From IMG/VR virus record IMGVR_UViG_3300021375_000155, positions 1-24,425 of that record: DNA of 24,425 nucleotides. One strand, 5' to 3'. The position numbers were made by a program, and so were the translations under genes. The DNA comes from a virus. Position 1 is the first letter of the stretch; each line of letters opens with the position of its first letter. This document shows, in pieces, positions 1-22,407 of this stretch. The notes below the pieces were generated by a model that worked only from the letters and a program-made list of their open reading frames with translations, had not been told where the DNA came from and searched no databases.

Positions 1-3000
1 TCTAGCATGAACGTTCCACGCATTCTCTTCGCCAACAGGGCCAAATCCATTACCTAGCTCTGCGTGTCCGTAGAAGTCGTGTACAGCTCTAAATATGTCA
101 TTAACGAGAAGAGTCTCTCCGTTTACATCCTTGACACCAGAGTCTCTAAGAAGTGGATTCTCTTTCCTTTGTTTTTCTGTTATAGGAGTATCTCCAAATC
201 CTGACTCTGTGGAGAAGATTTTCATCCTCTTATTATCCCTAAGATCATCAATCATCTCCTGAGCATTTTTGTATGGCTCAGAGTTATTAACCTCTATAGT
301 GTATCCTGCATCCTTGAAGTCCTGATACTGATCCATAGTCTCCTTTGCTAGAGCTTCATAAGCAGCCTTTACTTCAGGATCGTTAGGATTCTCTTGCATG
401 GCTTCAAATGCGTCGGATATTCTTTTGGCGAATTCCTTGTCTATCTTTTTGACACCTTCAAACCTTGGTCTTTCACCTTTGAAAATTCTCTTGTAATACT
501 TGTCCGCAATTGCCTTAACTGCCTTGAGGGGCTTATTGAAGAGCCTGTTTCCTGCTTTAGGTTTTTCATCTTTTATTATTTTTTTTGGTTTTACAAATAA
601 ATTAGGTATAAACTTTCCCTCATACAGGTCCATCTTCTCTTTAGATTGTGCGTGTAGCACACCCTTCTTACCTGACACCTGAGGTATAGCATCTTGCTCT
701 GTATCCTTAGCAAGTTTCATCATCTCCGATCCAGAAAGTTTTCTAGGGACTTGTATGACAAGAGTTTTACCGCTAACCTCAACATTTAAAGGTTCTACTG
801 GAAGTGCGTCTAATATCTCTTTCTGAGTCATTTCACGACCATCCTTGCCTTCAACCATCTCTATGTTTAAGAATGTCCCATCTGGAGCATCTTCTATTGT
901 AACCTCTGGACTCGCTATGCTTTCTTCTGTAGTAGCCTGCTCAGTATCTTGATCTGTTTTGCCTTGGGCAGCTTCTTCAGCTTGTCTAAGTTCGTTTTGG
1001 AATTCTTCATCTTGTTCTAGTAATTGTTCTATTTCTGTTGATTGTTGTGCTTGTCTTAATAACACATTATATGCAGCATCTTCTGCATTTTTTCCACGTA
1101 ATGTTTTTGACCTTGGCTTACCAACCTGATCAAGAGTGACTGAAGTTATGTTACCTCTACTGTCTCTTCTTATACGTGCACTTTCTGGGTTGTATATTTT
1201 ACCTTCAAATTCAATATTACCATCATCTGTAGTAGTGACACTAGGCATTTGTTGCTCGATACCCATTTCATCTAATGTCTTGTCTGATATCTTGTCAACG
1301 TTACCTATATCTGTAATATTTCCATTAGCATCTTCAACAACGATACGCTGACCATCTACATACATATCACCTTCTAGTGGGGTATCTAAATCAAAACCTC
1401 CAAGTTTTGTAAGTGTAACTGGTCTATTTATTAATTCACTTACTGTTTCTGCTTTCTCCTCAGGGGATAACTGTTCTGTTACTTCTTCCGTTTCTTCGAC
1501 AGCAGGCTCCCGTACTTCTTCTTCCATTTCTTGTACACCTTCGGCTCGTTCAGCATCAGGTATATCTCTTGTTTCTTGCTCTTGAATGGCATCTTCCTTT
1601 GTTTTTTGTTTAATCGACTCTCTTATCTCCGATATCTCTTTATCTATATCTTCGTGAAAAGAAGGGTCAAGTGTTTTTTTCTTATTTTCTAATTTTCGTA
1701 TGCTTTCCAAGTCAGATATAACATCTAAAGCTGTATCTGATTTCAAATCTGAAGGTATCTTAGACACGTTGTCCTTGTAAACTCTAACATCTCCAAGTAA
1801 TTCAGCTACTTGAGATTCAGAGTATATACCTTTATTTTGTTGAACCTTTAATAATTTTTCTAGTTTTTCTTGGTTTTCAGATAGTAATCTCAATGCCTTA
1901 ATTCTATCAACACCGTCGATACCTAGTAGTTTTTTTGATTTACTTCTAGCACCACCTATTAAATCCCCACCAAAAGGCATTAAAAAACCAGAAGTTAATG
2001 ATAACAGAGATGTATTTATAAAGCTGTCAACAGTAACTTCGTCTTCCTTTAGCTTTACACCAGCTAATTCATTTGTTCTTTTATTTACAACAAGAGTTTC
2101 TCCTGACTGTTGAATATTTTCTTGACCAGCCTCCTTTAATCCCTCCTCAAAGTAAGTTGTAGCTTTTCTTCCTGCTTTTTCAAAAATCTCGATAAAACCT
2201 TCTTTACCTATATTCTTATAAGCTTTTATAGCGTCTTTTATTGTTTCATTTTTAATCTTACCAAATATAGCTTCTGTGGCTTTTGTTTGTGGTGATATTG
2301 GAGCGGTAAGAGCATAAAGTTTTGCCATTTGAATTGAAGCATCTCTAGCTAACTCTACTGATTCCTTATCACTTAATCCAGCCTCTTTTGCAGCCAATAA
2401 TGTGTCTTCATATCCAGAAGAAGCTCCTAAGGTTGATTGAGCTAATATAGATGATGCTATTCCCCTATCTATTGTCAAACCTTTTGTTAGTTGTTTAAAA
2501 CTTGATGGAACATAACCTAATACACGTCTTACCTTGTCTGTATTGGAAATAGCAGAAACTATTTTACCACCGCTTGTAAAACTTCCTTGTAAGCCTATTT
2601 GAACAACCATATCACCCACAATGTTTGATGTTTCAAAAGCCATACCTTTAGAGCTAATACTAAAATCTTCAGTGCCGAATTGCACAGACTTATCTATTAT
2701 ATTATTTCTTAAATCTTCATCAATATAATTTGTTACACGTATCTTTAGGTCGGCATCATAAACCTGATTATTGCTGTCTACGATATAGTTCTTACCATCA
2801 ATATTAACTTTTTTTCCACCAACATAAGAGTAAGATAAGTTGTCACCATCTACTAGTTTTTCTTGCTCAATTTGAAATCTAATACCCTGAGCAGTGTTAG
2901 AAAAACCTATTAAATCAGTAAAACTAGCGGATAAGTTTTGTAGTCTTGTTTCAAAACCTTCGTAACCTTGATCTCCAAACTCTTTTAAAAAATCTAAATT

Positions 3001-4158
3001 ACCAAAATCACCTTCTAAATATTTTTTATATAAATCCCTGTTTTTTGAATCTGTCTCTAAAAGCTTTTCTGTTAGCTTAGGATAGTTTTTTTTGTAGTAC
3101 TCATTTATTTTAGGTATACTTACATTTTTATCTGACAATTTAAAAGAATATTTGTCATCTGTTAAATCTGGATCTATACCTTGTTCTTTTTCGTACTGTA
3201 ATTTTTGTTGCTTAATATCTCTCTTTGATTGCTCAGAAATATAAAGATCTAGCATTCTAGATAATTCCATTTCCTTAGCTAAATCAAGGTCATAAATAGA
3301 CCCGTATGTAGACTCAAAAGTTTTAGCCTTATTTATAAAATCCTGCTTCAAACCCTTTTCATTTAAGAATCCGTCAAAGTCTTTTATATTTACATTTGCT
3401 TCAGAAAGATCCTCTGAATTATAATTATATTCTATAAAGCTAAGATCTTCACTTGACTTTTCTTCATAAATATAAGGCTTGTCTAGTTTGAATTGAGATA
3501 TGGCGAAATCTAATTCATCTGAAGTTTTAGTCTTTCTTGAATATATTTTTTGTTTGGCGTTAAAAATCTCTTCTTGAGTAGGCTGTCTTTTTATTGTAGA
3601 AATTACTTCAGGATCTTTGTATCCAGCCAAAATTAAATCTTCATCTGAAATAAGTCCTTTGTTTATAGATTCTAATACACCTCTATCATTAAGATCTACA
3701 GGTTCATTTCTTTTTGAAAAATAGTTTCTAATATTTTCGTATTGATTATTATCACCTATAGACGTATCTGCTTTTTCTGGGGTTATTACTTCATCTAAAC
3801 CCATACTAACTAGGTATTCGTTTACACCTTGTAAATCCACCTTGTTCGGTTTATAGTAATCTAAAGTAGGTGTATCAACTGTTACGCCTGAAGCATCCGA
3901 TAAGATAGTTTGCTCTTCTTCCTTGGTAGTGGATTCCGTAACGCCCTCTTGAGAAGTAGAAACGACAGAATCGTCTTTTTTTTTTACAAGAGAAACGAAA
4001 TCATCATATGACCCAAATACAGACTCTCCTTTAGAATCGTAAACATCCTTTATATAACTGTCGTCAGATGTTATTAATGAATAATAATCATTGTAATTAC
4101 CAAATACAGATTCTCCTCCAAGATTGTCGTATATGTCTTTTATATATTTATCGTCCAT
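1..4158 (-). CDS. Giant internal virion / polyvalent-type protein, 3' end beyond window
   Basis: An uninterrupted frame runs from ATG at 4158 to base 1, 1386 codons with no stop; I read every codon. It begins one base after the stop of the 531-aa gene (TAA-G-ATG). Residues 2-58 hold two copies of a ~28-residue repeat (YIKDxYD..GESVFG.Y.D). Residues ~60-540 are charged and mostly helical. Residues ~567-735 contain Ala/Gly-rich and hydrophobic helices with a GYEDTLLAAKEAG stretch and a later EEGLKEAGQENIQQ stretch, which I recall from very large virion proteins of marine and Bacteroidota phages. Residues ~867-905 are Glu-rich and probably disordered. Residues ~1227-1386 form a compact domain with HDFYGH (1360-1365) and EENAW near the edge. 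Position after the tail and internal-protein genes suggests a protein carried in the virion and ejected with DNA. That role and any enzymatic activity are inference. Confidence 0.85.
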   Translation of the reverse strand, partial: MDDKYIKDIYDNLGGESVFGNYNDYYSLITSDDSYIKDVYDSKGESVFGSYDDFVSLVKKKDDSVVSTSQEGVTESTTKEEEQTILSDASGVTVDTPTLDYYKPNKVDLQGVNEYLVSMGLDEVITPEKADTSIGDNNQYENIRNYFSKRNEPVDLNDRGVLESINKGLISDEDLILAGYKDPEVISTIKRQPTQEEIFNAKQKIYSRKTKTSDELDFAISQFKLDKPYIYEEKSSEDLSFIEYNYNSEDLSEANVNIKDFDGFLNEKGLKQDFINKAKTFESTYGSIYDLDLAKEMELSRMLDLYISEQSKRDIKQQKLQYEKEQGIDPDLTDDKYSFKLSDKNVSIPKINEYYKKNYPKLTEKLLETDSKNRDLYKKYLEGDFGNLDFLKEFGDQGYEGFETRLQNLSASFTDLIGFSNTAQGIRFQIEQEKLVDGDNLSYSYVGGKKVNIDGKNYIVDSNNQVYDADLKIRVTNYIDEDLRNNIIDKSVQFGTEDFSISSKGMAFETSNIVGDMVVQIGLQGSFTSGGKIVSAISNTDKVRRVLGYVPSSFKQLTKGLTIDRGIASSILAQSTLGASSGYEDTLLAAKEAGLSDKESVELARDASIQMAKLYALTAPISPQTKATEAIFGKIKNETIKDAIKAYKNIGKEGFIEIFEKAGRKATTYFEEGLKEAGQENIQQSGETLVVNKRTNELAGVKLKEDEVTVDSFINTSLLSLTSGFLMPFGGDLIGGARSKSKKLLGIDGVDRIKALRLLSENQEKLEKLLKVQQNKGIYSESQVAELLGDVRVYKDNVSKIPSDLKSDTALDVISDLESIRKLENKKKTLDPSFHEDIDKEISEIRESIKQKTKEDAIQEQETRDIPDAERAEGVQEMEEEVREPAVEETEEVTEQLSPEEKAETVSELINRPVTLTKLGGFDLDTPLEGDMYVDGQRIVVEDANGNITDIGNVDKISDKTLDEMGIEQQMPSVTTTDDGNIEFEGKIYNPESARIRRDSRGNITSVTLDQVGKPRSKTLRGKNAEDAAYNVLLRQAQQSTEIEQLLEQDEEFQNELRQAEEAAQGKTDQDTEQATTEESIASPEVTIEDAPDGTFLNIEMVEGKDGREMTQKEILDALPVEPLNVEVSGKTLVIQVPRKLSGSEMMKLAKDTEQDAIPQVSGKKGVLHAQSKEKMDLYEGKFIPNLFVKPKKIIKDEKPKAGNRLFNKPLKAVKAIADKYYKRIFKGERPRFEGVKKIDKEFAKRISDAFEAMQENPNDPEVKAAYEALAKETMDQYQDFKDAGYTIEVNNSEPYKNAQEMIDDLRDNKRMKIFSTESGFGDTPITEKQRKENPLLRDSGVKDVNGETLLVNDIFRAVHDFYGHAELGNGFGPVGEENAWNVHAR
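3985..4155 (-). repeat. Tandem protein-level repeat at N-terminus of giant ORF
   Basis: Residues 2-29 and 32-58 align without much gapping: DDKYIKDIYDNLGGESVFGN and DDSYIKDVYDSKGESVFGS, each followed by Y(N/D)D and a hydrophobic end. The DNA copies have diverged, so this is an old duplication of a short unit. Confidence 0.8.
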
Positions 4159-4159
4159 C

Positions 4160-5755
4160 TTATTCTTGTTTTCTATTTGATGCGTTTAAAAGATTTTCTC
4201 CTTGAGTTTTATTTAAGTTATCAACAGCATTAAGTACAAGACTTAAATTTTTTACTCCGTCTGTTATTGTTTCACCATTAACCTCAATATCATTAGTGTC
4301 TGGTACAAATGATATACTAGCAGCTCCACCAACTAAGTTCTGTATTCTATTTGCTATCTCTTCACCCTTTTCATTACCTGATAATGCATTCCCGAAAGAA
4401 TCTTCTAATTTATTAGTGATACTGATTCTATTTGTTTGAGTATCAAAACTAACTTTAGGACTTTTTACAAAGACACCATAGTTACCACTATTTGCTGGAT
4501 CAAGTACTGATGCATTAAGACTTCCTTTTACACCTCTATCCTTGAAGAATTTAACCACCTTTAGAGGACCTGCTATTTCTTCACCGACCTGCTGTGCAGT
4601 CTTTCCTTTAGTATTTATTAAATACTCATTACCACTAGCATCTATTAATCTAAGAACACCATCCTTATCAGGAGCTTTAGATCCTACAAATCCTTTTTCA
4701 GATAAAGCAGATTGTAGTGATGAAAAATCACCCCTAGAGACGAAGTTTTCAATCAGAGATGCTACGTTTTTATCTGCTTTCTCCACAGAAGGTGTTCGTG
4801 GTCCTACAGGTCTTGATCTCTCTGTCTCTGTTCTTCCTATAGCTGCGTCTATCTGATTGTAAAGACCCTCCTCTACAGTTTCTCTAATACCTTCAACATC
4901 GAATACTATCTTGCCTCCCTCATTCTTAGCCAATATATATTGTCCAGGATTTTCCTTAGCAAGCTTCTCGTCATAGGTTACATCCATGTTCATCATGTCG
5001 GCAGCAGCCTCTAATATTTTCTTATCACTATTAAGTATAGACTTAACTTTTGATTTTAGAGTCTCCTTGTAAAAATCCTCACCCCTCTGTCTAAAGTCAG
5101 ACACACTCTTGTATCCACCTTTACTTGTTAAAGTCCAATTAGATATACCCTTAACAACGTTAACAACCTCATCAGTTGTATTAAACCTATCGTACTTTTT
5201 ATTTAGAATAGTATTCATTGATGTCGCAGGGACAACAATCTCATTACCACTCTCATCTCTAGTGAGAAAACTACCACGACCCATGTCATCAATAATCAAC
5301 TCAGACTTAGATATGTCTAAAGCACTTGCTACTTTCTTAGCTACAAAATCATTTAGAGATCCACCAGTTTCTATAAACGCACCAATTTTTTCATTGTAAA
5401 CTTTTGTTACGTCATTGATGGCTTTAAATGTATCCGAAGCACCTTGTTTTTTTATCTTGGTATCATTAACTGATACTAGACCATTCTTCAATAAATTATG
5501 ACTAGTCATAAGATAATCCTTATAGTTTTGAGCGTACTTCATCATAGCCTGATTCATAGTAGGGTCTAGACCCTTAGAATACTCATCTATTGCATTCAGC
5601 CTTTGAACCTGATCCTCTTCTATCTTAAGCTTAAGGTCATCCCTTCTGCTCTTCTCTTTCATAAGGTTGTCAGAGATATTTTTAGTTATCCCAGACCAGT
5701 CTATCATAGACTTGCTTATGTCGTCTCTCTCTTTGTACTTGTAGAATGTAGCCAT
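4160..5755 (-). CDS. Putative internal virion protein (531 aa)
   Basis: The protein opens with MATFYKYKERDD and a charged helical segment (residues ~10-60), followed by a mixed alpha/beta body and a Ser/Asn-rich C-terminus. I recall proteins with this same opening next to large virion proteins in marine Bacteroidota phages, usually without an assigned function. No catalytic motif, signal peptide or membrane segment is visible. It sits between the Ala/Gly-rich 288-aa protein and the giant ORF, which begins one base after its stop, so the three are probably one transcript made from the promoter at 6658-6665. By position it should be a virion component, perhaps an internal or cargo protein. That role is inference from context and family resemblance, not from a known fold. 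Confidence 0.85.
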   Translation of the reverse strand: MATFYKYKERDDISKSMIDWSGITKNISDNLMKEKSRRDDLKLKIEEDQVQRLNAIDEYSKGLDPTMNQAMMKYAQNYKDYLMTSHNLLKNGLVSVNDTKIKKQGASDTFKAINDVTKVYNEKIGAFIETGGSLNDFVAKKVASALDISKSELIIDDMGRGSFLTRDESGNEIVVPATSMNTILNKKYDRFNTTDEVVNVVKGISNWTLTSKGGYKSVSDFRQRGEDFYKETLKSKVKSILNSDKKILEAAADMMNMDVTYDEKLAKENPGQYILAKNEGGKIVFDVEGIRETVEEGLYNQIDAAIGRTETERSRPVGPRTPSVEKADKNVASLIENFVSRGDFSSLQSALSEKGFVGSKAPDKDGVLRLIDASGNEYLINTKGKTAQQVGEEIAGPLKVVKFFKDRGVKGSLNASVLDPANSGNYGVFVKSPKVSFDTQTNRISITNKLEDSFGNALSGNEKGEEIANRIQNLVGGAASISFVPDTNDIEVNGETITDGVKNLSLVLNAVDNLNKTQGENLLNASNRKQE

Positions 5756-5768
5756 TTATTGTAGTGCG

Positions 5769-6635
5769 TTAATTTATAGGTATTATAGGCTGTATAGGCG
5801 TTATAGGTGCTATAGGTGTCTGAGAAATATTCCTATAAGCAGGTGTAGGTACTGTAGGCATTATAGGTTGTATATTCATTGCAGTTTCTATAGGTGTCTG
5901 AGCAACACTCCGACCACCAGCTGTCAGTCCAGAGGCTAGGTTATTAAAACCTTGCTGGGTAATACCATTATTCATCATAGCTCTCCTTGCCTGTCTTGCA
6001 TTCATATCTCCATACATACCTGTCTGTTGTTGGTACGCTGAAGCAGCGGCTAACTCTGCTTGTCTGCCATTTCCATATAATGCTTGACCCTCGTAAAATG
6101 TTTGAGCTGCACCACCTAATCCTGTTATTGCACCAGATAAAGCCTGTGCTGACATCTGTTCTCTTTGGGCTGCTGCCATCTGAGCACCTTCCGCCTCTTG
6201 TAAGTTTATTGTTGCTAAAGCTCTATCAATCGTAGCCTGCTCATCAGCAACCATCTTATCTCTTGCATATATAGCGTCAGCCATCTGTTGCCTTTTCTTT
6301 TCTGTTGCCATAGCTCCAGCGGCTGATGACTTACCTACACCAGCGGCTAATGTTCTAGCGTCAGCCTCACGTAACCCTTCTAAGGATTGCATATGTTGTG
6401 CAGTTATCTCTCTTCCAGCCTGTTCGTAAGCGTCTAAGGGCACTTGTAAGCCTTCCATTCTATTAACCTCTATCTTACTCTTCGCTTGAGCCAAAGACTC
6501 TGCTGCTGCTCTCTCTGCGTCTCTCTCCTTCTTCTTTGCGTCTATAGATTGAGCTATATCTAAACCCATACCCAATACTTGTAATCCTACGCCTACAAAA
6601 GGTACTGCTGCTCCTAGTCCTGCTGCTGCTCCCAT
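5769..6635 (-). CDS. Ala/Gly-rich internal virion protein (288 aa)
   Basis: The N-terminus (MGAAAGLGAAVPFVGVGLQV...) is a hydrophobic Gly/Ala stretch of ~30 residues, followed by a long Ala/Glu/Gln/Lys-rich helical region (residues ~33-180) and a Pro/Ile-rich tail. This build, a membrane-active glycine-zipper-like start plus long helices, resembles internal ejection proteins of podoviruses such as T7 gp14, but the similarity is in composition and position only. It is the first gene after the promoter at 6658-6665 and precedes the 531-aa and giant virion proteins. The C-terminal ~17 residues repeat PI-x units, encoded by a 9-nt tandem repeat. Role in genome delivery is inferred. Confidence 0.85.
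   Translation of the reverse strand: MGAAAGLGAAVPFVGVGLQVLGMGLDIAQSIDAKKKERDAERAAAESLAQAKSKIEVNRMEGLQVPLDAYEQAGREITAQHMQSLEGLREADARTLAAGVGKSSAAGAMATEKKRQQMADAIYARDKMVADEQATIDRALATINLQEAEGAQMAAAQREQMSAQALSGAITGLGGAAQTFYEGQALYGNGRQAELAAASAYQQQTGMYGDMNARQARRAMMNNGITQQGFNNLASGLTAGGRSVAQTPIETAMNIQPIMPTVPTPAYRNISQTPIAPITPIQPIIPIN
5775..5819 (-). repeat. Five-unit 9-bp tandem repeat (tataggNNN)
   Basis: On the plus strand tatagg recurs every 9 bases at 5775, 5784, 5793, 5802 and 5811, with three variable bases between. It is in frame with the 288-aa gene and encodes a repeated x-P-I tail. Degenerate units continue to about 5935. Confidence 0.85.
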
Positions 6636-6657
6636 ATATTATTGTTTTTTATTAATG

Positions 6658-6665
6658 CAAATATA
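6658..6665 (-). promoter_or_regulatory. Bacteroidota-type -7 element TATATTTG
   Basis: Minus-strand TATATTTGCA matches TAnnTTTG. It lies in the 38-base gap between the 251-aa and 288-aa genes, with its G 23 nt before the ATG at 6635. I see no TTG -33 element at the usual spacing. Confidence 0.6.
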
Positions 6666-6673
6666 CTATTTTT

Positions 6674-7429
6674 TTATGGATAACTCTTGAATAAAGAGGA
6701 TCCTACACCAAATATCTCGGTAAATGTGTTAGATAAATTAACAGGTAGCTCTAAATGGTATTCTAGATAATATCCTGTAGTTCCATAAGACTCAGCTACA
6801 TTGTTCTTCACATACATCAAATACTCTCCAACAGTAGGTACAGAACCACCACCAACCGTAGTGTCTACAGTTATGGTTTTACCATCAACAGAAGTTATGT
6901 CTCCAATAAAGTCTGTGCCTGTAAGTGAAGTCATACGCATCTTATCACCGACAGATATCATACTGTCTAGCCTAAACCCAAACGTTATCAATACAGCTGA
7001 GGTGTCAGATGAATCTACATCCGTACTAGACCCAATACCTTGAAGAGACCTCATCTCAAAAACTCCATCAGAATCATTTCTTCTAATGTGTGCGTAGTAA
7101 TCACCCTCCTTTAGACTAAACCAAGTATTATCTATAAAGCCAGAACCTAAATCACTTGTAACCGTACAGTTAAATGGTTTAGTACTCTCTAAAGATATAG
7201 TCTTAAATGTCTTAACTGTAGATGGTTCTTCATTTATGACACCAGTTATAGTAGACACATACTGTGTTCCATAAAAATTATTCCTAGTATTATTGGTATT
7301 GTGTCTATACAACCTTCCACCCTTAAATGAATAAAAGTAGTTATTCATCCCTATCATCATATCTGGCTCAAAGGAATAGAACGAAGTCCATCCCTTAGCT
7401 GACTCACTGTATGTTAATGTTTTATCCAT
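6674..7429 (-). CDS. Tail nozzle companion protein (251 aa)
   Basis: The start (TLTYSESAKGWTSFYSFEP, then a segment ending FKGGRLYRHN) matches a motif I know from nozzle or 'stabilization' proteins of marine and crAss-like phages, where a KGW.SF.S block is followed by a short strand and a 'LWKHN'-type end. It probably completes or docks onto the beta-propeller of the preceding 1569-aa protein. Residues ~145-205 contain a small beta module (VGDKMRM...GDITSVDGKTITV) like ones in the major capsid and 340-codon proteins. The ATG lies 5 bases after the upstream stop, in a different frame, so translation is probably coupled. The C-terminus (LFKSYP) looks complete. No enzymatic motif is seen. Role as a short-tail component is inferred from motif and position. 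Confidence 0.85.
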   Translation of the reverse strand: MDKTLTYSESAKGWTSFYSFEPDMMIGMNNYFYSFKGGRLYRHNTNNTRNNFYGTQYVSTITGVINEEPSTVKTFKTISLESTKPFNCTVTSDLGSGFIDNTWFSLKEGDYYAHIRRNDSDGVFEMRSLQGIGSSTDVDSSDTSAVLITFGFRLDSMISVGDKMRMTSLTGTDFIGDITSVDGKTITVDTTVGGGSVPTVGEYLMYVKNNVAESYGTTGYYLEYHLELPVNLSNTFTEIFGVGSSLFKSYP

Positions 7430-7434
7430 CTATT

Positions 7435-10400
7435 TTAGCATTGAATAATGTTAATTATAACTCCACTAGTACCTATAACAATTACATAGTCTGACACTGT
7501 TATACTTGATAATACATAGCTCTGTCCGTCTGTAAGACCACTAGATAGTCTATACGTTCCAGAAGAAAGAAGTACTATATCTCCTCCACTAGTCTGGTAC
7601 AAGTTTTGACCAACTATTATTGCATCAGTCTCATCTACACTTACAATACTAGTAGCAACTCCATCAGCATCATTACAATCATCCACAGCTACAACGCTAT
7701 CGTATGTCACACCATTATCCGACCATTGTGATGTAAACGTAGTGTCTGAAGTTATAGTTGTTGGAAGTGTTGGAGACCATCCTGTAAATGTCCAACCAAA
7801 TCTAGTTGGTGTGCCTGGGCTTGTTACAGATAACGGAGACAGTCCAAACTGACTAGAATACCTTTCATTCCCTAAGCTATTATCAAACGTAGCTGTAACA
7901 GTTGTACCTGAAACCTGATCTATATAATCCCATACCAAATACAGATACTGATTATTAGAAGTGTTAGTGTATGTAAATGAAGCCTCATACACATCTGTCT
8001 CTGGACTTAATATAGGCGTAGCCTCTGTTAGTAAAGGTATAAGTGTAGCTATGTCTCCTTCCTGATAAAGAACATCAGAGACTAGGTACTTGAACTTGTC
8101 AATATCCCATTCAGCCAAATCACCTTCCAGCTTCTTATATCTCATAGTGACAGTTGCACCCTCAGATGGTGATCCACCTTGAGACTCAAAGTTAGTAGAT
8201 GTCTCGTATAAAGATACAGGACCTTCACCAAAAGTAAAGGAATCAGTCACAACCTGACTAGAAAATCCATTATCCTCCCATAGGTATTCGTGATGAATAC
8301 TTAGGTCTTCCATTTCATCTGTATTATTAACTATCCTTACAACAGTAAGCTGCTGTGCCTGAACACATCCAAAGTTTATTTCATATGTAGCATTTGTTGG
8401 TGTCAGTACTAGCACACACTCGTTTACATTCAGTTCATCCTTTGAGAATGTTAATGTACCTGTTCCAGTTAACACCTGGTCTAGTACATCTGTACCGTCA
8501 TACGTGACAAGTATATCTAAACTACCAGCTGTAATGTCGTAATCAATATCAACATCTCCTGTAAAATCATCTAGGTTAATATTATATGTAGCTACAGTGC
8601 TTGATGACTGTTGTGCTAAACTGAATCCACAATCTCTAGTATCTTCCTGTACATCTATTAAGTTATCAGTAAATGATAAAACATACTCATTCATGTAAGG
8701 ATCATACTCACCTAAATGCATTTTATTAGTGTTCTCTATAAACCTATCTCTAAACCAAGAACGCATTCCTAATGAAGAAATAACATTAAGCTGGTCACCT
8801 GTACCACCAGCACCTCTTAAGTTTATTACAGCACCTCTCTTTGAGTCTGTGAAGAATATATCGAAACCATAGTTAGAAAAACTTTCAGGATTATTACTTA
8901 TACCATACTCCTCAATCCTTGGTATTTGTTGTCCAAGTACGTCAGGTGTGGATAGTATAGCTCCTCCTGCCTGTGCATCTGAAAATAAATTCTTACCATT
9001 AGCAAGTACATAAGATATCTTATCCTCCTGAAGGGTGAGTATATCACTCATCCTTGCATGAAGTACCTCTATAGGTCCAAAGTTTTGTTCTAGCGTCTTG
9101 AAGTTTACTAAACCTAGATTGAACTCGTTTAGCTTGTTAAGGTTTGTCTCCTGATTGTACACACCACTATAAGTAATGTCTGCATACCTATGAGCCTCCT
9201 TATAGTCCTGCTCAGACACAGCAGTCACCCTAGCACCAAGATTAAACCCTGGTTGAGCTAAACCATCCTCTATCTTAAAACTTTCAACACCGTTACCAAA
9301 GGCAAAGCAGTTATACATATCTAGATTGACAATACACGAATCACTACTTGTCTGATCTTGAACATCACCAGTATGGTATCTGTCCTCTGTTATTGGGTAA
9401 CTCTTAAAACTCTCGTAGTATATCTCGTTAGTGTTTTCCTCTGGTATAGTCTCAAAAACTAAAAGTTCTCCTGCATTAAATACCTGAATATGAACAGTAA
9501 GCCAATAGTTTCTTCCATTACACTTACTACCAGCTTGAGTGAATGTCAAGAAAGAACTGTAATTAGAAGTCCCTGGTGTATTATTTCTAACAAACTGAAT
9601 ACCCGTTACACCTTCACCAGCATTATAACCACCAGATATTATACTATAAGTAGAGAGAACAACCAATGCTGTCCCAATACTTTCATCAAAATCTGCGCTA
9701 GGGGTAGTGTCGTCAGAACTCTCAGGTCCTGGATTGTTTGTAGGGTTGTTGAAGTCTACGTTCTCGCTTATTATGAAGTCGTAAAGACTATCGTAATCTC
9801 TGGTAGCTATAAACGTTCTATCGAACTTAAAATACCTAGATCCACAACCACTTCCTGAACCAGCTCTGTGGTTATTGAAAAATATCCTAACCTCACTTCC
9901 AGACGTTATTGAATAGTCTATATAAGTCCCTGGATTATCTGGGTCTTCTATATATGTAGGGTACGCTTGACCAACACCATTTTTTTTAGTCAAACTATCA
10001 AAATCTATGTCCTCTACCTCGGACTCAGCGATAGTAAAATTACTAGGTCTGACCTTCATATACACCCCACTACTAGGAGGGACCTCATTATTCTCGTCTA
10101 TAAAATGTTTTTCCTTTGTCTCTAAATCTAACACCTTGGTCTTTATAACATCTGTTGTAGGTCCATCTGATGCTTTCTTTACTATTAAACTGTCACCGTT
10201 CTTAAACTTTGTCTGATTATCACCCTCAAGCTTTAACCACCAAGCACCTTCACTAGTGTCAAAATAATAGTTCTGCACATAAACAGTCTCGTAATTACCC
10301 TTACTCGGCTTCATTACAAGCCTATATCTCTTTGCCCAGCTTGGAGCTAAACTATTTATTGTTGTTGTAATTGAGTTCTTATTTATAGAGTACTGAGGCT

Positions 10401-12144
10401 CTACATACACTGTATTGTAATTACTAACAAGAGCAGTTGAAGCTCTGTTATATTCGTCAAGATAAACAATACCTACCTCATAATCCCTATTACTATGCAG
10501 ACTCTGTCTATTACCTTGTTCAGTTATGGACGTAGTTGTAGAGCTGTTAGAGAAATATTCGTATGCATAAGTTCCAGGGTTTGTACTATCCTCAAACTCT
10601 ACTGCTGGTATCTGTATACTTAGTGTATTTCCAGAGTGAGATACTATAAATCCTTGGTCTGAAGATGTAATACCTCCATCAGAAATACCCCAGTTACCAC
10701 TAGCGTGGTCTACTATATTTGAAAAAAACAAGTCACTCAGGCTATATCCATCATCCTCAGTACCTGGGAATCCTGTCGGGTCTGTTAACTCTATAGAGGC
10801 TAAAAAATCAGTATCTGTAGCAAGATCCTGTGCATCTGAAAAATCTCTAGGGAATATAAATTCAAACGTTTCCTGGTAATTATTCTCTACCTCACTTCCA
10901 TCTACAAAAGAAGCATCTCCACCAAATGAATCATGAACAATATTAAAATCTATATTAAGACTACCTCCCTCTAACATATCAATATCAGTAAGGTCTATAT
11001 CTAGCCTTGAGTTTGTTATAGTTACATTAGGTGTTTCTAATGTGTAATCAGTTCCATCATCCCTAGATTCTACTAAAGGATTGAATCCTATATCCTCAGT
11101 ATTAAGTTCAATACTGTAATCAATAATGGTGTCTACATTATGTCCATCATAATAGTTACCATACATAATCCTATTACCTATAGTTGTCTGTGCCTTAGCC
11201 TTCTTAGGAACGTTATCATATAACCTTAGTAACTCACTCTCTGGTAGCGTGGTATATATCTTTTGGTTAGTGAACTCTACAGATACATTGTCATTGTCAC
11301 CCCATCCCATCTCTGACTTATCGTACTTCTCTATAACATTAATTATATTTGTGTTAGATAGTTTGAAACACAAGTCAATACCAATAACGTCAGATGGTCC
11401 AGTAAAAAAATCAACATTAACAGAGTTAATATTATTTCTCATACCAATCATATCATAGCTACCATAGTCAAATCTAAACTGTCCTGGAGTAAATGCTAAA
11501 TCTGAAAACTCAGAAAGGGCAGAATACTCTCCGTCCTTGTACTTATATCTATAAGAAAATCGGATAAACTTCTCCTCCATATAGTTATCCTTCTTAGCTT
11601 TCTTTGATAGTGTTAAAACAGGAGCATCTACAGGTGGCTTAACTATAACCGATATGTCATCCTCTGTAATCTGATCAACACCTCCAATTGGTTCAGGGTA
11701 TGACGACAGAACGTTTATACGTCTCGGTTGATTATAATTGTCTGTAAAAAATAATAGGTCATCTATAAGATTGATACCATTGATAAGATACCTCTCATCG
11801 AAGTTTAATACAGTCTCTGATACAACATGATATGTTATTGAATCTGACTTGGTATTGTATGATAATATAATATCTACAACATCAGACGTTAAAAACCAGT
11901 ATATTTTTTCATTTTCTCCATCCTCATACGCACCGATACATACAGCATCTGCCACATCTTTTCCATCATACCTAGGTGTTGCTAACAGCTCATTACCTTT
12001 TGTGTTTTCAGCACTTAATGCTTCACCATCCTCAGAAGATGATACACGTATGTTTAACGCATCCGTATAATCACCAGCAGGTATTAATCTTTCGTCTAGA
12101 CTTTTATTCATTCTAGACCCTATAAAATTCTTGTTTATAATCAT
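7435..12144 (-). CDS. Tail nozzle / stabilization-like protein (1569 aa)
   Basis: This is the largest complete gene in the window. The N-terminus (MNKSLDERLIPAGDYTDALN, residues ~12-31) and the following 'DEKLYWF'-like strand (here GENEKIYWFLTSD) match the family of large beta-rich tail proteins called stabilization or nozzle-like in crAss-like and marine phages, related in role to T7 gp12. Much of the chain is beta strands with aromatic spacing, consistent with a propeller plus added domains. Residues ~1145-1400 form an Ig-like or jelly-roll-like beta region. Residues 1415-1474 resemble an InlB/Flg_new repeat (PTRFGWTFTGW ... TSQW). The gene begins one base after the 305-aa gene stop and is followed by the 251-aa companion. 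It likely forms the distal part of the short tail, possibly contacting the host surface. Fold and position in the virion are inferred. Confidence 0.9.
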   Translation of the reverse strand: MIINKNFIGSRMNKSLDERLIPAGDYTDALNIRVSSSEDGEALSAENTKGNELLATPRYDGKDVADAVCIGAYEDGENEKIYWFLTSDVVDIILSYNTKSDSITYHVVSETVLNFDERYLINGINLIDDLLFFTDNYNQPRRINVLSSYPEPIGGVDQITEDDISVIVKPPVDAPVLTLSKKAKKDNYMEEKFIRFSYRYKYKDGEYSALSEFSDLAFTPGQFRFDYGSYDMIGMRNNINSVNVDFFTGPSDVIGIDLCFKLSNTNIINVIEKYDKSEMGWGDNDNVSVEFTNQKIYTTLPESELLRLYDNVPKKAKAQTTIGNRIMYGNYYDGHNVDTIIDYSIELNTEDIGFNPLVESRDDGTDYTLETPNVTITNSRLDIDLTDIDMLEGGSLNIDFNIVHDSFGGDASFVDGSEVENNYQETFEFIFPRDFSDAQDLATDTDFLASIELTDPTGFPGTEDDGYSLSDLFFSNIVDHASGNWGISDGGITSSDQGFIVSHSGNTLSIQIPAVEFEDSTNPGTYAYEYFSNSSTTTSITEQGNRQSLHSNRDYEVGIVYLDEYNRASTALVSNYNTVYVEPQYSINKNSITTTINSLAPSWAKRYRLVMKPSKGNYETVYVQNYYFDTSEGAWWLKLEGDNQTKFKNGDSLIVKKASDGPTTDVIKTKVLDLETKEKHFIDENNEVPPSSGVYMKVRPSNFTIAESEVEDIDFDSLTKKNGVGQAYPTYIEDPDNPGTYIDYSITSGSEVRIFFNNHRAGSGSGCGSRYFKFDRTFIATRDYDSLYDFIISENVDFNNPTNNPGPESSDDTTPSADFDESIGTALVVLSTYSIISGGYNAGEGVTGIQFVRNNTPGTSNYSSFLTFTQAGSKCNGRNYWLTVHIQVFNAGELLVFETIPEENTNEIYYESFKSYPITEDRYHTGDVQDQTSSDSCIVNLDMYNCFAFGNGVESFKIEDGLAQPGFNLGARVTAVSEQDYKEAHRYADITYSGVYNQETNLNKLNEFNLGLVNFKTLEQNFGPIEVLHARMSDILTLQEDKISYVLANGKNLFSDAQAGGAILSTPDVLGQQIPRIEEYGISNNPESFSNYGFDIFFTDSKRGAVINLRGAGGTGDQLNVISSLGMRSWFRDRFIENTNKMHLGEYDPYMNEYVLSFTDNLIDVQEDTRDCGFSLAQQSSSTVATYNINLDDFTGDVDIDYDITAGSLDILVTYDGTDVLDQVLTGTGTLTFSKDELNVNECVLVLTPTNATYEINFGCVQAQQLTVVRIVNNTDEMEDLSIHHEYLWEDNGFSSQVVTDSFTFGEGPVSLYETSTNFESQGGSPSEGATVTMRYKKLEGDLAEWDIDKFKYLVSDVLYQEGDIATLIPLLTEATPILSPETDVYEASFTYTNTSNNQYLYLVWDYIDQVSGTTVTATFDNSLGNERYSSQFGLSPLSVTSPGTPTRFGWTFTGWSPTLPTTITSDTTFTSQWSDNGVTYDSVVAVDDCNDADGVATSIVSVDETDAIIVGQNLYQTSGGDIVLLSSGTYRLSSGLTDGQSYVLSSITVSDYVIVIGTSGVIINIIQC
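7723..7902 (-). other. InlB B-repeat / Flg_new-like module in nozzle-like protein
   Basis: Residues 1415-1474 read TVTATFDNSLG, then PTRFGWTFTGWSP, then TITSDTTFTSQW. The order 'V.FD....' / 'PTR.G.TF.GW' / 'T..DTTFTAQW' is the signature of the Listeria-Bacteroides repeat found in bacterial surface proteins. Confidence 0.7.
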
Positions 12145-12145
12145 T

Positions 12146-13063
12146 CTATTTTAACCATTTTTGAGCACCCCTCATATTCATAAGTAGGCGACCAGGATGA
12201 ATGTTACTAAGTCTTATCTTGGCATTTCTTAAAAGAGCAGATTTATCTTTCTGAGCTCTCCTAACTACATACTCCTGAACAGCAAACTTAGAATTAAGTA
12301 TAGCGTACTTCATGTATGCATATATGTAATCTTCAAATAACTTATTTAGACTTACCTTTGCATCATCTCCGCCTTCCATACCATCAGACACATACTCTAT
12401 AACTACAATCTGATCAGCCATAGCTGAACTGAAGCTTATAACTCCACTAGATTTATTTATCTTAAATGTTGGATTTGCATTAGCGGTTTCAGTATTTAAA
12501 CCATACCTACCTCCTACAGAGTAATCAAACACCCATTTTCCTTCTATCTGATACCCAAGAGAACCATTCATTCTTCCCTCTCCTAAGTATTGTGTTTTTT
12601 GAACACCATCAATTCTATCTAGGTCTAGTATACCACTTCCTATAAGAACATCTCCATCCTGATCAAATAATACACGAGCATCATTGTCTTGTAGGTAACT
12701 CTTTGAAAAGTTAGTATTAACATTCTCTGTTAAAGGCATTAAGACTCCATCCTTATATAAAGATATTCTAACCCAGTTTACATAGTCTGGAGGAAGAACA
12801 ACTGTTGCATTGTCAGATACAGATAGCTCAACTATCTTTGTCTCCTTCATCGCATCGTAATTCAATTCCTGTATACCTCTCTTTGCATGGAATAATACAT
12901 TATACCTCTCAACATTGTTTACCAACTTATCATTACCGACATACATCAACATAAAGTTGTTTACAATATCATCCAATGATATGTACTGATATGATCCCCA
13001 ATTATTATCCTCTGGGTTAGACCCTGCATTCTCGTAATATTGATATCCTGTTAAATATGCCAT
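12146..13063 (-). CDS. Tail adaptor / ring protein (305 aa)
   Basis: The opening block (ISLDDIVNNFMLMYVGNDK, then an 'FHAKRGIQELNYD' helix, then 'VVLPPDYVNWVRISLY') is a pattern I recognise from conserved structural proteins of marine and Bacteroidota phages that act as head-to-tail adaptors or ring proteins beneath the portal. A middle beta region (residues ~130-225) is followed by helices ending in a basic C-terminus (PGRLLMNMRGAQKWLK). The ATG overlaps the stop of the 340-codon gene by one base (TAATG), and the nozzle gene follows after one base, so the three are probably translated together and assemble in the same complex. A role like T7 gp11 or P22 gp4 is inference from family resemblance and gene order. 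Confidence 0.88.
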   Translation of the reverse strand: MAYLTGYQYYENAGSNPEDNNWGSYQYISLDDIVNNFMLMYVGNDKLVNNVERYNVLFHAKRGIQELNYDAMKETKIVELSVSDNATVVLPPDYVNWVRISLYKDGVLMPLTENVNTNFSKSYLQDNDARVLFDQDGDVLIGSGILDLDRIDGVQKTQYLGEGRMNGSLGYQIEGKWVFDYSVGGRYGLNTETANANPTFKINKSSGVISFSSAMADQIVVIEYVSDGMEGGDDAKVSLNKLFEDYIYAYMKYAILNSKFAVQEYVVRRAQKDKSALLRNAKIRLSNIHPGRLLMNMRGAQKWLK

Positions 13064-14037
13064 TATCCTTGTTTTTGTGCTTCTTTAATTTCTTCGTTAC
13101 TTGCTGTCTGATATACGTCAGCCTCTCTTATAGATATACCTGCATACTTTAGTATCTTATTCACTAAGTTAGGTTCATCAGTAATAGGTAGTTCAAAATC
13201 CTGATAGTCAGTTGAACTCTGATCAAAAGCTGGCTCTCCTCCAGATAGACTTGTATATGTCCACTTAGGGTCTCTTGGCTTCCTAATATATTGAGCAGTA
13301 ACCTGACCCACTGCATCTACGCTATTAGGAAATACAGATATAGTTAACTCGCTCTGAGTGTATGCTGGAGTGTTTAACTTAGGAGCTGTAAGGTTTGATG
13401 AGTTTAGCATTGTTATCTTTGAATGAGAAACTCTCTCTACTTCTTTCTGAATAGTATTAGCCTCATATACAGAATAAACACTTGAAGAGCTAGATATATT
13501 TGTGTTAGATACAACCAAAGTATCTGTACCTGTAATACTATTTATTCTCTCGAAAAAAATTCTATCACCTACCTGTATAGCAACATAGTCACCTACAGAT
13601 ACTCCTAAACTTACAAAATCTTTGCTTGTGTCAACAACACCATTATTTCCTACAGTAACACCAGTAGTAGTTCCCTCTGTTAAAATATTTTTATATACCA
13701 ATACCTTATTTAAAAGGTAATACGTATCATCGTTATTTGTCTCGTTAGGCATATTATATAAGTTAGAAATACCACTCGGTGGATTAACCCTATATAAAGA
13801 GTCCTGAACAGAAAACAAGTCAATAACCTCTTCTAAATTTTTTACTATATCAGCATAGCCACTACCTGAAACTCTAGAGTTCTGTTTGACCATCCATTCA
13901 TTATATCTATAGAAATAATCCTCAAAAATATCTAACTGTGCCTGCTTTGCATAAAGATTAAAGTCAGCAGGACTTATATATCCGAAGTTTTGCTTGTTAG
14001 CTACAGCCAACACAGTATTTCTTACACTGTTTATCAT
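13063..14037 (-). CDS. Head-tail connector / ring-type structural protein (324 aa from inner start)
   Basis: I place the start at the ATG at 14037 (MINSVRNTVLAVANKQN...) rather than at an in-frame ATG at 14085, because the latter lies inside a terminator hairpin and upstream of a TATCTTTG promoter, and would add a 16-residue aromatic stretch. The N-terminal block (YISPADFNLYAKQAQLDIF) and the C-terminal 'QYIRKPRDPKWTY' block resemble a conserved structural protein of Bacteroidota and marine phages located between capsid and tail genes. Residues ~115-175 carry an inserted beta module (VGDYVAIQVGDRIFFERINS). It is the first gene of the tail unit and overlaps the adaptor gene by one base. Function as a ring or head-completion protein is inferred from context. 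Confidence 0.85.
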   Translation of the reverse strand: MINSVRNTVLAVANKQNFGYISPADFNLYAKQAQLDIFEDYFYRYNEWMVKQNSRVSGSGYADIVKNLEEVIDLFSVQDSLYRVNPPSGISNLYNMPNETNNDDTYYLLNKVLVYKNILTEGTTTGVTVGNNGVVDTSKDFVSLGVSVGDYVAIQVGDRIFFERINSITGTDTLVVSNTNISSSSSVYSVYEANTIQKEVERVSHSKITMLNSSNLTAPKLNTPAYTQSELTISVFPNSVDAVGQVTAQYIRKPRDPKWTYTSLSGGEPAFDQSSTDYQDFELPITDEPNLVNKILKYAGISIREADVYQTASNEEIKEAQKQG

Positions 14038-14053
14038 CTTGTAAAAGTTTATG

Positions 14054-14061
14054 CAAAGATA
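14054..14061 (-). promoter_or_regulatory. Bacteroidota-type -7 element TATCTTTG
   Basis: Minus-strand TATCTTTGCA lies directly after a terminator T-tract, with its G 17 nt before the ATG at 14037. The expected -33 position falls in the hairpin, and no TTG is seen there. Confidence 0.65.
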
Positions 14062-14062
14062 G

Positions 14063-14096
14063 TAAAAATAAATAAACCCCTTCATTTCTGAAAGGG
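14063..14096 (-). terminator. Rho-independent terminator after 247-aa gene
   Basis: The minus strand reads CCCTTTCA-GAAA-TGAAGGGG, a 7-bp stem with one bulged T and a GAAA loop, followed by TTTATTTATTTTT. It lies about 30 bases past the 247-aa stop and immediately before the promoter of the tail unit. Confidence 0.75.
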
Positions 14097-14125
14097 TCTA
14101 GATAATATGTGTTATATGGTAAGTT

Positions 14126-14948: not shown

Positions 14949-16349
14949 TTATTTAAATAAGAAGAAATTGTTTGCACCTAATGTACATAAAGCTCTCTCT
15001 GATAAGAAGTGAACCTCCATAGCATCTAAATCGCTATTTGAAGCACCTCCAGCAGAACCTACGATCCAAGACTTCATCTTACGATCTTCAGTTTCAGAAG
15101 CTCTATATCTTACGTGTAAGAATGGACGCTTAGCGTTTTTACCCATGATTTGGTCATAAACGTTAGTAGATCCAGCAGGAACTAATACTCCGTCTACAGC
15201 ACCACCAACGATACCACCTCTCATAGTTGCATCATTTAAGTACTTCCAGTCAGACTTATAGAAGTCATATCCTCTACGGAATCCGTTGAATCCTAAGTTT
15301 AAAGCCATATCTTGATCGTTATCAAACAATCCAAAAGAAGCACCTGAAGAACCGAAGTTATTCTGTGCAGCTAATACATTGTCAATCTCGAAAGAAAGTG
15401 CACGGTTAACGAAAAGAACGTTCTCTTCGATAGCACCTTGCTTATCTAAACGAGTAACAACAGCATCGATATCATCTAAATCAGCTAAAGAACCTGTAGT
15501 AGTGTTACCACCATTTTCTATAGCGTAGAATAAACCTTCAGAACCTTTATTTCCTAAGTCTCCACTAGCAGCAATTGCTCCAGAGTTAGCCTCAGCAGGA
15601 ACAGCCTCGATCATTGCAGTCTCTAAATAATCTTCAAAACGCTGACGAGTTTCGTGCTCAGACTTTAAGTACCATAGGTATCCTGAACCATTCTCTCCTT
15701 CAACTTCGATCCATCCGATCTGAGCCATGTCAGAACCTGATACTGAATACTTGTCCTTGATGATGATTGGGTTATTTTCCTTGATATCCTCTTCAGCCTC
15801 TAAAGCACCATCCATTCCGTTTGATCCTTTTTTAAATTCAGAACCATAAACAAATAAGTCTAAGTCAGTAGCAGAGTTATCACCTGATGCTAATCCAGCA
15901 ACAGCAGGAAGACCAGCTGCGTCATAGATAGCTACAGTTACAGTATCAGCAGTAGTAGCAGTGATGATACCTTTGAAAGAAGCAGTAGCTGATGTAGATC
16001 CATCAGATACCATTACAGTCTGTCCTTTTCTAAGTGCGTGACCTGTAATGTTAAGTACAACGTCATCCTGACCAGCTACTTCAGCATCGTCAAGAGTAAC
16101 ACCCTCATATTTAATGTGTAAACGTCCTTGCTCAGACCACTTGATTAAGTCAGAAGTACAAGGCATTTCAGCTCCAACCATTCTTAAGAAAGAGCTAACT
16201 GATCTGTTACCATAACGCTCGAATTCTTTTTCGTAAGTGTCTGGTAAGTACTGATTCAAAAAGTTGAAGTCAGTAATGTAATTTCCAGGTAATGTTACCT
16301 GGCTTGGAGCTGGAGTTAAACTCACAGATCCTCCTAATGTAAAAGCCAT
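14949..16349 (-). CDS. Major capsid protein, HK97-fold candidate (466 aa)
   Basis: Size, position after portal and scaffold genes, and composition (rich in Gly, Ala, Asp, no long coiled coil) indicate the major shell protein. The N-terminal arm (~1-70) precedes a helix with FERYGNRSVSSFLRMVG, then a small beta insertion (residues ~95-150, GQTVMVSDGSTSATASFKG). The segment YLWYLKSEHETRQRFEDYLE looks like the long spine helix region, and the C-terminal part (FLHVRYRASETEDRKMKSWI) like the axial domain strands. The family resembles capsid proteins of Bacteroidota short-tailed phages. It has no promoter of its own in the 24-base gap upstream and is probably expressed from the promoter before the scaffold gene. 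A strong hairpin ends the transcript just past its stop, consistent with a high-output two-gene unit. Confidence 0.88.
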   Translation of the reverse strand: MAFTLGGSVSLTPAPSQVTLPGNYITDFNFLNQYLPDTYEKEFERYGNRSVSSFLRMVGAEMPCTSDLIKWSEQGRLHIKYEGVTLDDAEVAGQDDVVLNITGHALRKGQTVMVSDGSTSATASFKGIITATTADTVTVAIYDAAGLPAVAGLASGDNSATDLDLFVYGSEFKKGSNGMDGALEAEEDIKENNPIIIKDKYSVSGSDMAQIGWIEVEGENGSGYLWYLKSEHETRQRFEDYLETAMIEAVPAEANSGAIAASGDLGNKGSEGLFYAIENGGNTTTGSLADLDDIDAVVTRLDKQGAIEENVLFVNRALSFEIDNVLAAQNNFGSSGASFGLFDNDQDMALNLGFNGFRRGYDFYKSDWKYLNDATMRGGIVGGAVDGVLVPAGSTNVYDQIMGKNAKRPFLHVRYRASETEDRKMKSWIVGSAGGASNSDLDAMEVHFLSERALCTLGANNFFLFK

Positions 16350-22148: not shown

Positions 22149-22407
22149 AGCTGTTCATATTTTTTGTTTCAGTTCCTGAACTCTCTATAAGTTCTTTCTC
22201 TGACTCTATTCTAGATAGTATCTCAAAAGCATCAAATATAGCAAGCTTTTTTGATGCAGCAGCATTCTTTAACCTATCGGCAGCTATCTCTGGAGATAGA
22301 TCATCAAGATCCTTCTTAATTATATCCTCCTTAGCGACCTTTATAAGTTCCTGAACAGCCTTTTCAGCTGCCCTTATTATCTCTATCTTTATTTTTCTTG
22401 AGTCCAT
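22126..22407 (-). CDS. Small helical protein, terminase small subunit candidate (93 aa)
   Basis: The protein is small, charged and almost entirely helical (MDSRKIKIEIIRAAEKAVQE..., then 'LSPEIAADRLKNAAASKKLA'), ending in a basic FAERRAK. It sits directly before TerL, overlapping it by 23 bases, and overlaps the 189-aa gene by 19 bases. I recall short proteins of the same pattern just upstream of TerL in marine Bacteroidota phages. That position is where a terminase small subunit normally lies, and the size and helical content would suit one. No clear helix-turn-helix is visible, so TerS is a suggestion only. Confidence 0.85.
   Translation of the reverse strand: MDSRKIKIEIIRAAEKAVQELIKVAKEDIIKKDLDDLSPEIAADRLKNAAASKKLAIFDAFEILSRIESEKELIESSGTETKNMNSFAERRAK

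What the first reader, a model, noticed from the sequence alone, without database searches (positions are those of the whole stretch)
1..4158. A giant open frame (at least 1386 codons) runs off the left edge
No stop codon occurs in this frame from ATG 4158 to base 1, so nearly a fifth of the window is one gene that a closed-ORF search would miss. Helical segments with GYEDTLLAAKEAG and EGLKEAGQENIQQ recall very large virion proteins of marine and Bacteroidota phages, and the visible end adds a separate compact domain. Such multi-domain proteins can be injected with DNA and act early in infection.
Basis: partly seen in the sequence, partly recalled or inferred. Interest (0 to 1): 0.62.

Follow-up and report, generated by a model that had tools for sequence, protein, structure and literature searches.

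The report
Giant injected phage protein, swappable parts
The long open frame at the left edge is the first third of a 3,588-residue phage protein that is probably packed in the virion and injected into the bacterium as a string of enzymes, and near-identical sister phages carry different enzymes in the same gene behind the same short front tag.

Summary
In detail: window 1-4158 (-) is stop-free for 1,386 codons and is cut only by the contig end. A 60.7-kb contig identical to window 1-14158 gives the whole gene: 3,588 aa (L002:10001-20767). It is the last gene of a podovirus late operon (terminase, portal, capsid, rings, crAss-type muzzle, then 288-aa, 531-aa and giant). The unexpected part is intragenic cassette exchange. 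A sister phage with ~97% identical flanks has a 3,844-aa allele with most of the middle replaced. Elemo and Cellulophaga isolates show the same kind of change, and in two lineages the replaced part begins just behind the N-terminal leader. The leader is short repeats, KKK and an S/T-rich linker; KKK lies at residues 26-110 in 25 of 31 giants (5% expected). Best explanation: a virion-packaged, injected multi-effector whose leader stays while effector domains are swapped. Packaging, injection, processing and enzyme activities were not tested here. Parent class known (polyvalent proteins); constant-leader cassette exchange and the HDxFGH domain are the new points.

The parts
1..4158 (-). 5' part (residues 1-1386 of 3588) of the giant gene; the rest is on L002:14159-20767
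3862..4158 (-). N-terminal leader, residues 1-99: two ~30-residue repeats (YIKDIYDNLGGESVFGNYNDYYSLI / YIKDVYDSKGESVFGSYDDFVSLV), KKK at 59-61, S/T/E-rich linker; constant between alleles
   Evidence: 90% over 99 aa vs the L003 allele, dropping to ~20-30% right after; KKK in residues 26-110 of 25/31 giants
1609..3861 (-).
   Evidence: same place replaced in elemoD versus elemoA/C
709..1608 (-). linker and 'DGQRVVVEDxxGNITxIGNVD'-type segment, residues ~850-1150, partly conserved between alleles (38-72% per 60-residue block for much of it)
1..576 (-). start of the HDxFGH domain (residues 1195-~1465, cut by the window edge); HDFYGH at window 64-81
   Evidence: 68 viral loci by tblastn, 48-row alignment with invariant H1360 D1361 G1364 H1365 E1377 E1378 H1384 E1399; AF2 pLDDT 87, pTM 0.83; found in other phage polyvalent proteins by fold
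4160..5755 (-). 531-aa protein directly upstream; same place as crAss001 gp46 (cargo C2, 534 aa); diverges (92% nt) between L002 and L003 while the two genes farthest upstream are >=99.8%
   Evidence: no sequence homology to gp46 detected
5769..6635 (-). 288-aa virion protein with hydrophobic N-terminus (phrog_13764); inferred small ejection protein
6674..7429 (-). separate gene carrying the crAss muzzle C-terminal domain (PF25729, E 5e-14)
7435..12144 (-). muzzle protein body, 1569 aa (phrog_14478, E 5e-247)
12146..14085 (-). two virion structural proteins (305 and 340 aa; phrog_13977, phrog_14543), tail-ring position
14949..16349 (-). 466-aa virion protein, major capsid position (phrog_13704, E 4e-107)
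17488..22148 (-). portal (phrog_6547) and terminase large subunit (phrog_6681)

Best explanation
The frame is the start of a phage-type polyvalent protein: a giant virion cargo polypeptide that is packed with the ejection proteins and passed through the portal and muzzle into the cell ahead of or with the DNA. The N-terminal leader (short repeats, KKK, S/T-rich linker) marks it for loading or leads ejection, the N-module and C-terminal LPD38 module serve virion and ejection functions, and the middle is a row of effector enzymes (HDxFGH domain, zincin-like segment, phrog_30118, DUF7178, ADP-ribosyltransferase). The zincin-like segment may cut the chain into working pieces in the host. Effector segments are exchanged between phages by recombination at conserved islands and linkers, while the leader and usually the C-module of a lineage stay. 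Shown: full length, architecture, position, allele replacement, common leader. Inferred: packaging, injection, processing, enzyme activities, function of the leader.
For: Domains: ART-PolyVal 9e-13, DUF7178 4.5e-27, LPD38 4e-4 (below Pfam cut-off) in P0002; LPD23 4e-23, SprT-like 3.5e-6 and ART-PolyVal 2.5e-4 in the sister allele P0003; HEAFHA/HESFHA zincin motif in the two alleles, segment 43-44% identical in elemo giants. [quoted passage not shown] Position: end of late operon after the muzzle, the slot that holds cargo proteins gp45-gp47 in crAss001 (PMC10172136); counterparts annotated structural. Exchange: L002/L003 flanks ~97% with islands of 93-98% inside a replaced middle; L004, from another metagenome, carries the L003-type N allele at 99%; elemoC/elemoD isolates 99.5% over 7.3 kb before and 98.5% over 8.65 kb after a replaced ~2.1 kb (residues ~140-820), 2 records of that one isolate versus 66 records with the other allele; phi13:2/phi19:3 differ by a ~120-aa segment placed in a T/E/Q-rich linker; phi13:2/phi46:3 share 1,051 aa at 98% and then have unrelated C-ends. 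Leader: KKK in residues 26-110 of 25/31 giants, 5.4% expected.
Against: No virion proteomics or injection assay for this phage. 'Structural protein' labels were taken as deposited. The zincin matched Pfam only weakly (Peptidase_M13 E 0.04-0.08). The KKK P-value (1e-26) ignores relatedness of the phages, and elemo, phi13:2 and Panino lack KKK in that range. No solved structure resembles the HDxFGH domain or the C-module. In phages with ~70-74% identical terminase that carry the HDxFGH domain, the C-module was not detected, so the C-module is not a universal anchor.
Confidence: 0.75

Rival explanations
1. The alternative alleles are assembly chimeras, and the gene is an ordinary single-version giant.
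For: Repeats and strain mixtures can make chimeras in metagenome contigs; elemoD_13-5B is labelled a partial genome.
Against: Each allele type is seen twice in the window lineage: window and L002 (differing elsewhere by 15 bases), and L003 and L004 from different metagenomes. Cultured isolates (elemo; phi13:2, phi19:3, phi46:3) show the same kind of change, mostly in one continuous frame.
Confidence: 0.05
2. It is a purely structural or host-range protein (tape-measure or fibre-like), variable because it faces receptors.
For: Counterparts are annotated structural; strong local variation is typical of adhesins.
Against: No fibre, lectin or adhesin family matched; the variable segments match LPD23, SprT-like, DUF7178 and ART families; it follows the small and mid-size ejection-type genes.
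Confidence: 0.08
3. It is a packaged RNA polymerase like those of N4 or crAss phages, filling the same slot.
For: Same position as crAss001 gp47 after gp44-gp46; N4-type vRNAPs are also polyvalent proteins with MPTase (PMC5512222).
Against: No RNA polymerase family in Pfam or PHROGs for 3,588 and 3,844 aa; no other ORF above 806 aa in the two end pieces of the contig examined.
Confidence: 0.05
4. The replaced segments are neutral phage mosaicism with no effector role; only the ends work in ejection.
For: Phage genes are commonly mosaic; activities are untested.
Against: The segments are enzyme-like families known from conflict systems, and the HDxFGH motif residues are invariant across 48 sequences down to 45% identity, which shows selection on that domain.
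Confidence: 0.12

Closest known systems
Phage-type polyvalent proteins (Iyer et al. 2017, PMC5512222)
   Same: Many unrelated domains in one chain, ART-PolyVal, zincin-like segment, LPD38, coded among virion genes; mosaicism noted there for H. pylori jhp1044 and for kinase-bearing loci with cassette-like side genes.
   Different: Here the exchange is caught between phages 97-99% identical around the gene, in cultured isolates too, and starts right behind a common N-terminal leader in two lineages; the HDxFGH domain matches no Pfam or NCBIfam model.
crAss001 cargo slot gp45/gp46/gp47 (PMC10172136)
   Same: Order ring, muzzle, mid-size cargo of ~530 aa, giant; crAss muzzle C-terminal domain present.
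   Different: No sequence link of the 288- or 531-aa protein to gp45/gp46; the giant is polyvalent instead of an RNA-polymerase subunit; the muzzle C-terminal domain is a separate gene.
Giant structural proteins of Elemovirus, Pachyviridae and Pervagoviridae phages
   Same: Same place after terminase, portal, capsid and muzzle genes; about 1,700-3,850 aa; shared zincin (43-44%, elemo) or C-module (27-28%, phi46:3, Panino).
   Different: Different domain sets; no whole-length homology.
Bcep22-like phage JC1 gene 69 (PMC9144972)
   Same: Giant protein of over 4,400 aa with LPD38 near its C-terminus, other LPD and enzyme domains.
   Different: Carries a lytic transglycosylase and helicase-like regions; proteobacterial host.
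T7 gp14-gp15-gp16 / N4 gp50 ejection proteins
   Same: Small, mid-size and giant order at the end of the late genes (from own knowledge).
   Different: C-module model has no PDB match; no transglycosylase family found.

Membership tests
Phage-type polyvalent protein | Several unrelated enzymatic/LPD domains in one polypeptide | tested here: met
   ART-PolyVal, DUF7178, LPD38 (weak) plus HDxFGH domain; LPD23, SprT-like and ART in the sister allele
Phage-type polyvalent protein | Encoded among late virion genes | tested here: met
   Follows terminase, portal, capsid, rings, muzzle
Phage-type polyvalent protein | Zincin-like metallopeptidase (commonest hub domain) | tested here: inconclusive
   HEAFHA and a downstream E-rich helix in the sequence, conserved in both alleles and elemo; only weak Pfam M13 match
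Phage-type polyvalent protein | Packed in the virion and delivered to the host | not testable with these tools
   Needs virion proteomics and an injection assay
Crassvirales | crAss-type muzzle | tested here: met
   PF25729 E 5e-14; PF25731 weak, below cut-off
Crassvirales | Giant packaged RNA polymerase genes after the muzzle | tested here: not met
   Giant has no RNAP family; no other giant ORF in the contig pieces examined. Not filed as Crassvirales; nearest terminases belong to Elemovirus and Pachyviridae
T7 gp16-like ejection protein | Fold similarity of the conserved C-terminal module to solved ejection proteins | tested here: not met
   Best Foldseek E 0.1, membrane transporters, TM < 0.2; model confidence only moderate (pLDDT 73)
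Aromatic amino acid hydroxylase (for the HDxFGH domain) | HDxFGH plus a later Glu iron ligand | tested here: met
   H1360-D-F-Y-G-H1365 and invariant E1399, compared with FHDVFGH...TVEFGL in bacterial PhhA
Aromatic amino acid hydroxylase (for the HDxFGH domain) | Significant profile or fold similarity | tested here: not met
   hhalign probability 4%, P 0.01, 13 columns; Foldseek E 1.8-8, TM < 0.2. Not a member; motif resemblance only

The most novel reading that the evidence does not exclude
The leader (short tandem repeats, KKK, S/T-rich linker) is a portable loading and ejection signal shared by giant proteins of many Bacteroidota-type podoviruses, and the gene behind it is a polymorphic injected-effector locus, the phage counterpart of polymorphic toxins, with the HDxFGH domain as a new predicted metal-dependent effector.
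Probability: 0.35. Interest if true: 0.75.

Novelty: new variant of a known kind. Interest (0 to 1): 0.5.

Why it matters
If right, a single gene lets these phages change their whole injected toolkit by recombination while the packaging machinery stays fixed. The near-isogenic elemo isolates (elemoC versus elemoD, same host strain) make it directly testable which step of infection or which host defence the exchanged part addresses. A true loading leader would also be a handle for studying how phages choose what they inject. The HDxFGH domain is a widespread phage fold (20 BFVD matches at E <= 0.001, none in PDB) with no known function.

Tried and rejected
Pfam on the window part alone found nothing; the full-length protein was needed. 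The C-module fold gave no PDB match, nor did profile searches. Homology of the N-modules between lineages could not be established (hhalign probability 13% window-Cellulophaga, 84% elemo-Cellulophaga, no iteration gain). The 288- and 531-aa proteins against crAss gp45/gp46: no homology. The ~1155-1330 segment of the sister allele looked GNAT-like by eye but matched no family or solved structure, so it is not named as such. NCBIfam slices: nothing credible (the gyrA and chorismate mutase hits are far below cut-off).
Full report
OBSERVATION. The window's left edge cuts one open frame on the minus strand, 1..4158, 1,386 codons from ATG 4158 without a stop; by chance this has probability ~2e-52 at this composition. 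A public contig of 60,676 bp is identical to window 1-14158 and completes the gene: 3,588 aa, L002:10001-20767. The window is a separate record, since the remaining 10.8 kb carries 15 mismatches to that contig. The contig's ends share a 100-149 bp direct repeat, which suggests a complete genome, in line with the circular 60,850-bp relative MW202828.

SURROUNDINGS. Reading on the minus strand: GroES-like (22389-22958), terminase, portal, a 355-aa protein, a capsid-position protein, 247-aa, 340-aa and 305-aa proteins (the last two in the tail-ring position), muzzle (1,569 aa, phrog_14478 E 5e-247), a separate 251-aa gene with the crAss muzzle C-terminal domain (PF25729, E 5e-14), a 288-aa virion protein, a 531-aa protein, then the giant. 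Nearest terminases: MW202828 (73%), Flavobacterium elemo phages (45%), Maribacter Panino (41%), Cellulophaga Pachyviridae and Pervagoviridae phages (34-38%). The place corresponds to the crAss001 cargo slot gp45-gp47 (PMC10172136), but the 288- and 531-aa proteins show no detectable homology to gp45/gp46. In the relatives the equivalent giants are annotated as structural proteins; the experimental basis of those labels was not verified here.

DOMAINS. On the full 3,588 aa: ART-PolyVal 2452-2604 (E 9e-13), DUF7178 2211-2321 (4.5e-27), LPD38 3243-3396 (4e-4, below the Pfam cut-off), phrog_30118 at 1718-1915 (3.5e-66), phrog_3170 at 1261-1411 (7e-17). The sequence VAHEAFHAIFLN with a later E-rich helix reads as a zincin-like metallopeptidase, with only a weak Pfam M13 match. 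The compact domain that the window edge cuts (residues 1195-~1465) was aligned in 48 phage sequences from 68 loci; invariant residues include H1360, D1361, H1365, E1377, E1378, H1384 and E1399. AlphaFold2 gives a confident, mainly helical model (pLDDT 87). No solved structure matches it (best E 0.58); among viral models it matches 20 entries at E <= 0.001, including polyvalent proteins with NAT, ART-PolyVal or LPD labels and stand-alone mycobacteriophage and Gordonia phage proteins. The motif HDxFGH...E is shared with bacterial phenylalanine hydroxylases, but profile and fold tests were not significant; a metal site is an inference.

C-MODULE. Residues 2670-3588 occur at or near the C-terminal end of 1,370-3,940-residue frames in about 25 other viral contigs, whose middles carry various domains: DUF3293, DUF7178, LPD23, ART-PolyVal. 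Its model (pLDDT 73) has no PDB match. Panino and phi46:3 share it; elemo, phi13:2 and the eleven giants of phages related by terminase and carrying the HDxFGH domain do not, as far as sequence shows. So the ends are exchanged as well over longer times.

ALLELE EXCHANGE. (a) L002 versus L003: ~97% DNA identity over 10.3 kb upstream (ending at residue 99) and 3.7 kb at the 3' end and beyond; in between only islands remain (594 bp at 94%, the zincin region; 177 bp at 98%; 106 bp at 93%); the rest is ~20-30% identical in protein or unrelated, and the lengths differ, 3,588 versus 3,844 aa. The HDxFGH domain was not found in L003. L004, from a third metagenome, has the L003-type N allele at 99%. 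The neighbouring 531-aa gene diverges too (92% L002/L003, 97% L003/L004), and the 288-aa gene of L004 is only 70-74% identical. (b) Cultured elemo phages: elemoC and elemoD are 99.5% identical over 7.3 kb before and 98.5% over 8.65 kb after a replaced stretch covering residues ~140-820, which begins right behind a KKK at 137-139; the D allele occurs in one isolate (2 records), the other allele in 66 records. (c) Cultured Cellulophaga phages: phi13:2 and phi19:3 differ by a ~120-residue segment inside a T/E/Q-rich linker; phi13:2 and phi46:3 are 98% identical for 1,051 residues and unrelated after a linker. Assembly error is therefore an unlikely general explanation.

LEADER. Giants of this group start with one or two short repeats, of different kinds in different phages, then KKK, then an S/T/G/E-rich linker. 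KKK falls within residues 26-110 in 25 of 31 giants against 5.4% expected from the rest of the same proteins; the P-value (1e-26) ignores relatedness. In the window lineage and in elemo, the exchanged part begins just behind the leader. A loading or ejection function is an inference.

MECHANISM. Shown here: architecture, position, exchange, leader. From published work on these families: polyvalent proteins are proposed to be packaged and injected, with MPTase domains thought to process them (PMC5512222); crassvirus cargo proteins are stored in capsid and tail and thought to be extruded partly unfolded (PMC10172136). Inference: the protein studied here is loaded by its leader, ejected with the 288- and 531-aa proteins, cut by its zincin, and its enzymes act early on host targets or defences.

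NOVELTY. The class is known (polyvalent proteins). New as far as the tools show: exchange of effector segments between near-isogenic phages behind a constant leader, the leader itself, and the HDxFGH domain as an undescribed fold in this class. The literature was not searched for the leader, so prior description cannot be excluded.

Noticed in passing
window 6674-7429 and 7435-12144 (-): The crAss-type muzzle is split: the C-terminal muzzle domain (PF25729) is a separate 251-aa gene (212 aa in L003), whereas crAss001 gp44 is one protein.
   Followed up: partly
L004:7653-8387: The 288-aa ejection-type gene of L004 is only 70-74% identical to L002/L003 although most of the genes upstream of it are ~98-99% identical: a second allele-like replacement next to the giant.
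   Followed up: partly
L014:26439-32958 (phi46:3 gp120/gp121): The homologous giant is split inside the C-module in phi46:3, in both public versions of the genome seen here; real split or base error cannot be told.
   Followed up: partly
window 22389-22958 (-): GroES-like co-chaperonin (phrog_13932, E 1e-21) two genes before the terminase; a GroES gene lies at or next to the same place in elemo, phi46:3, phi38:1 and Panino.
   Followed up: no
L002:15152-15745: phrog_30118 segment (E 3.5e-66) of unknown function inside the giant.
   Followed up: no
window 24100-24423 (-): Gene cut by the right edge resembles virion structural phrog_10356 (E 1e-8).
   Followed up: no
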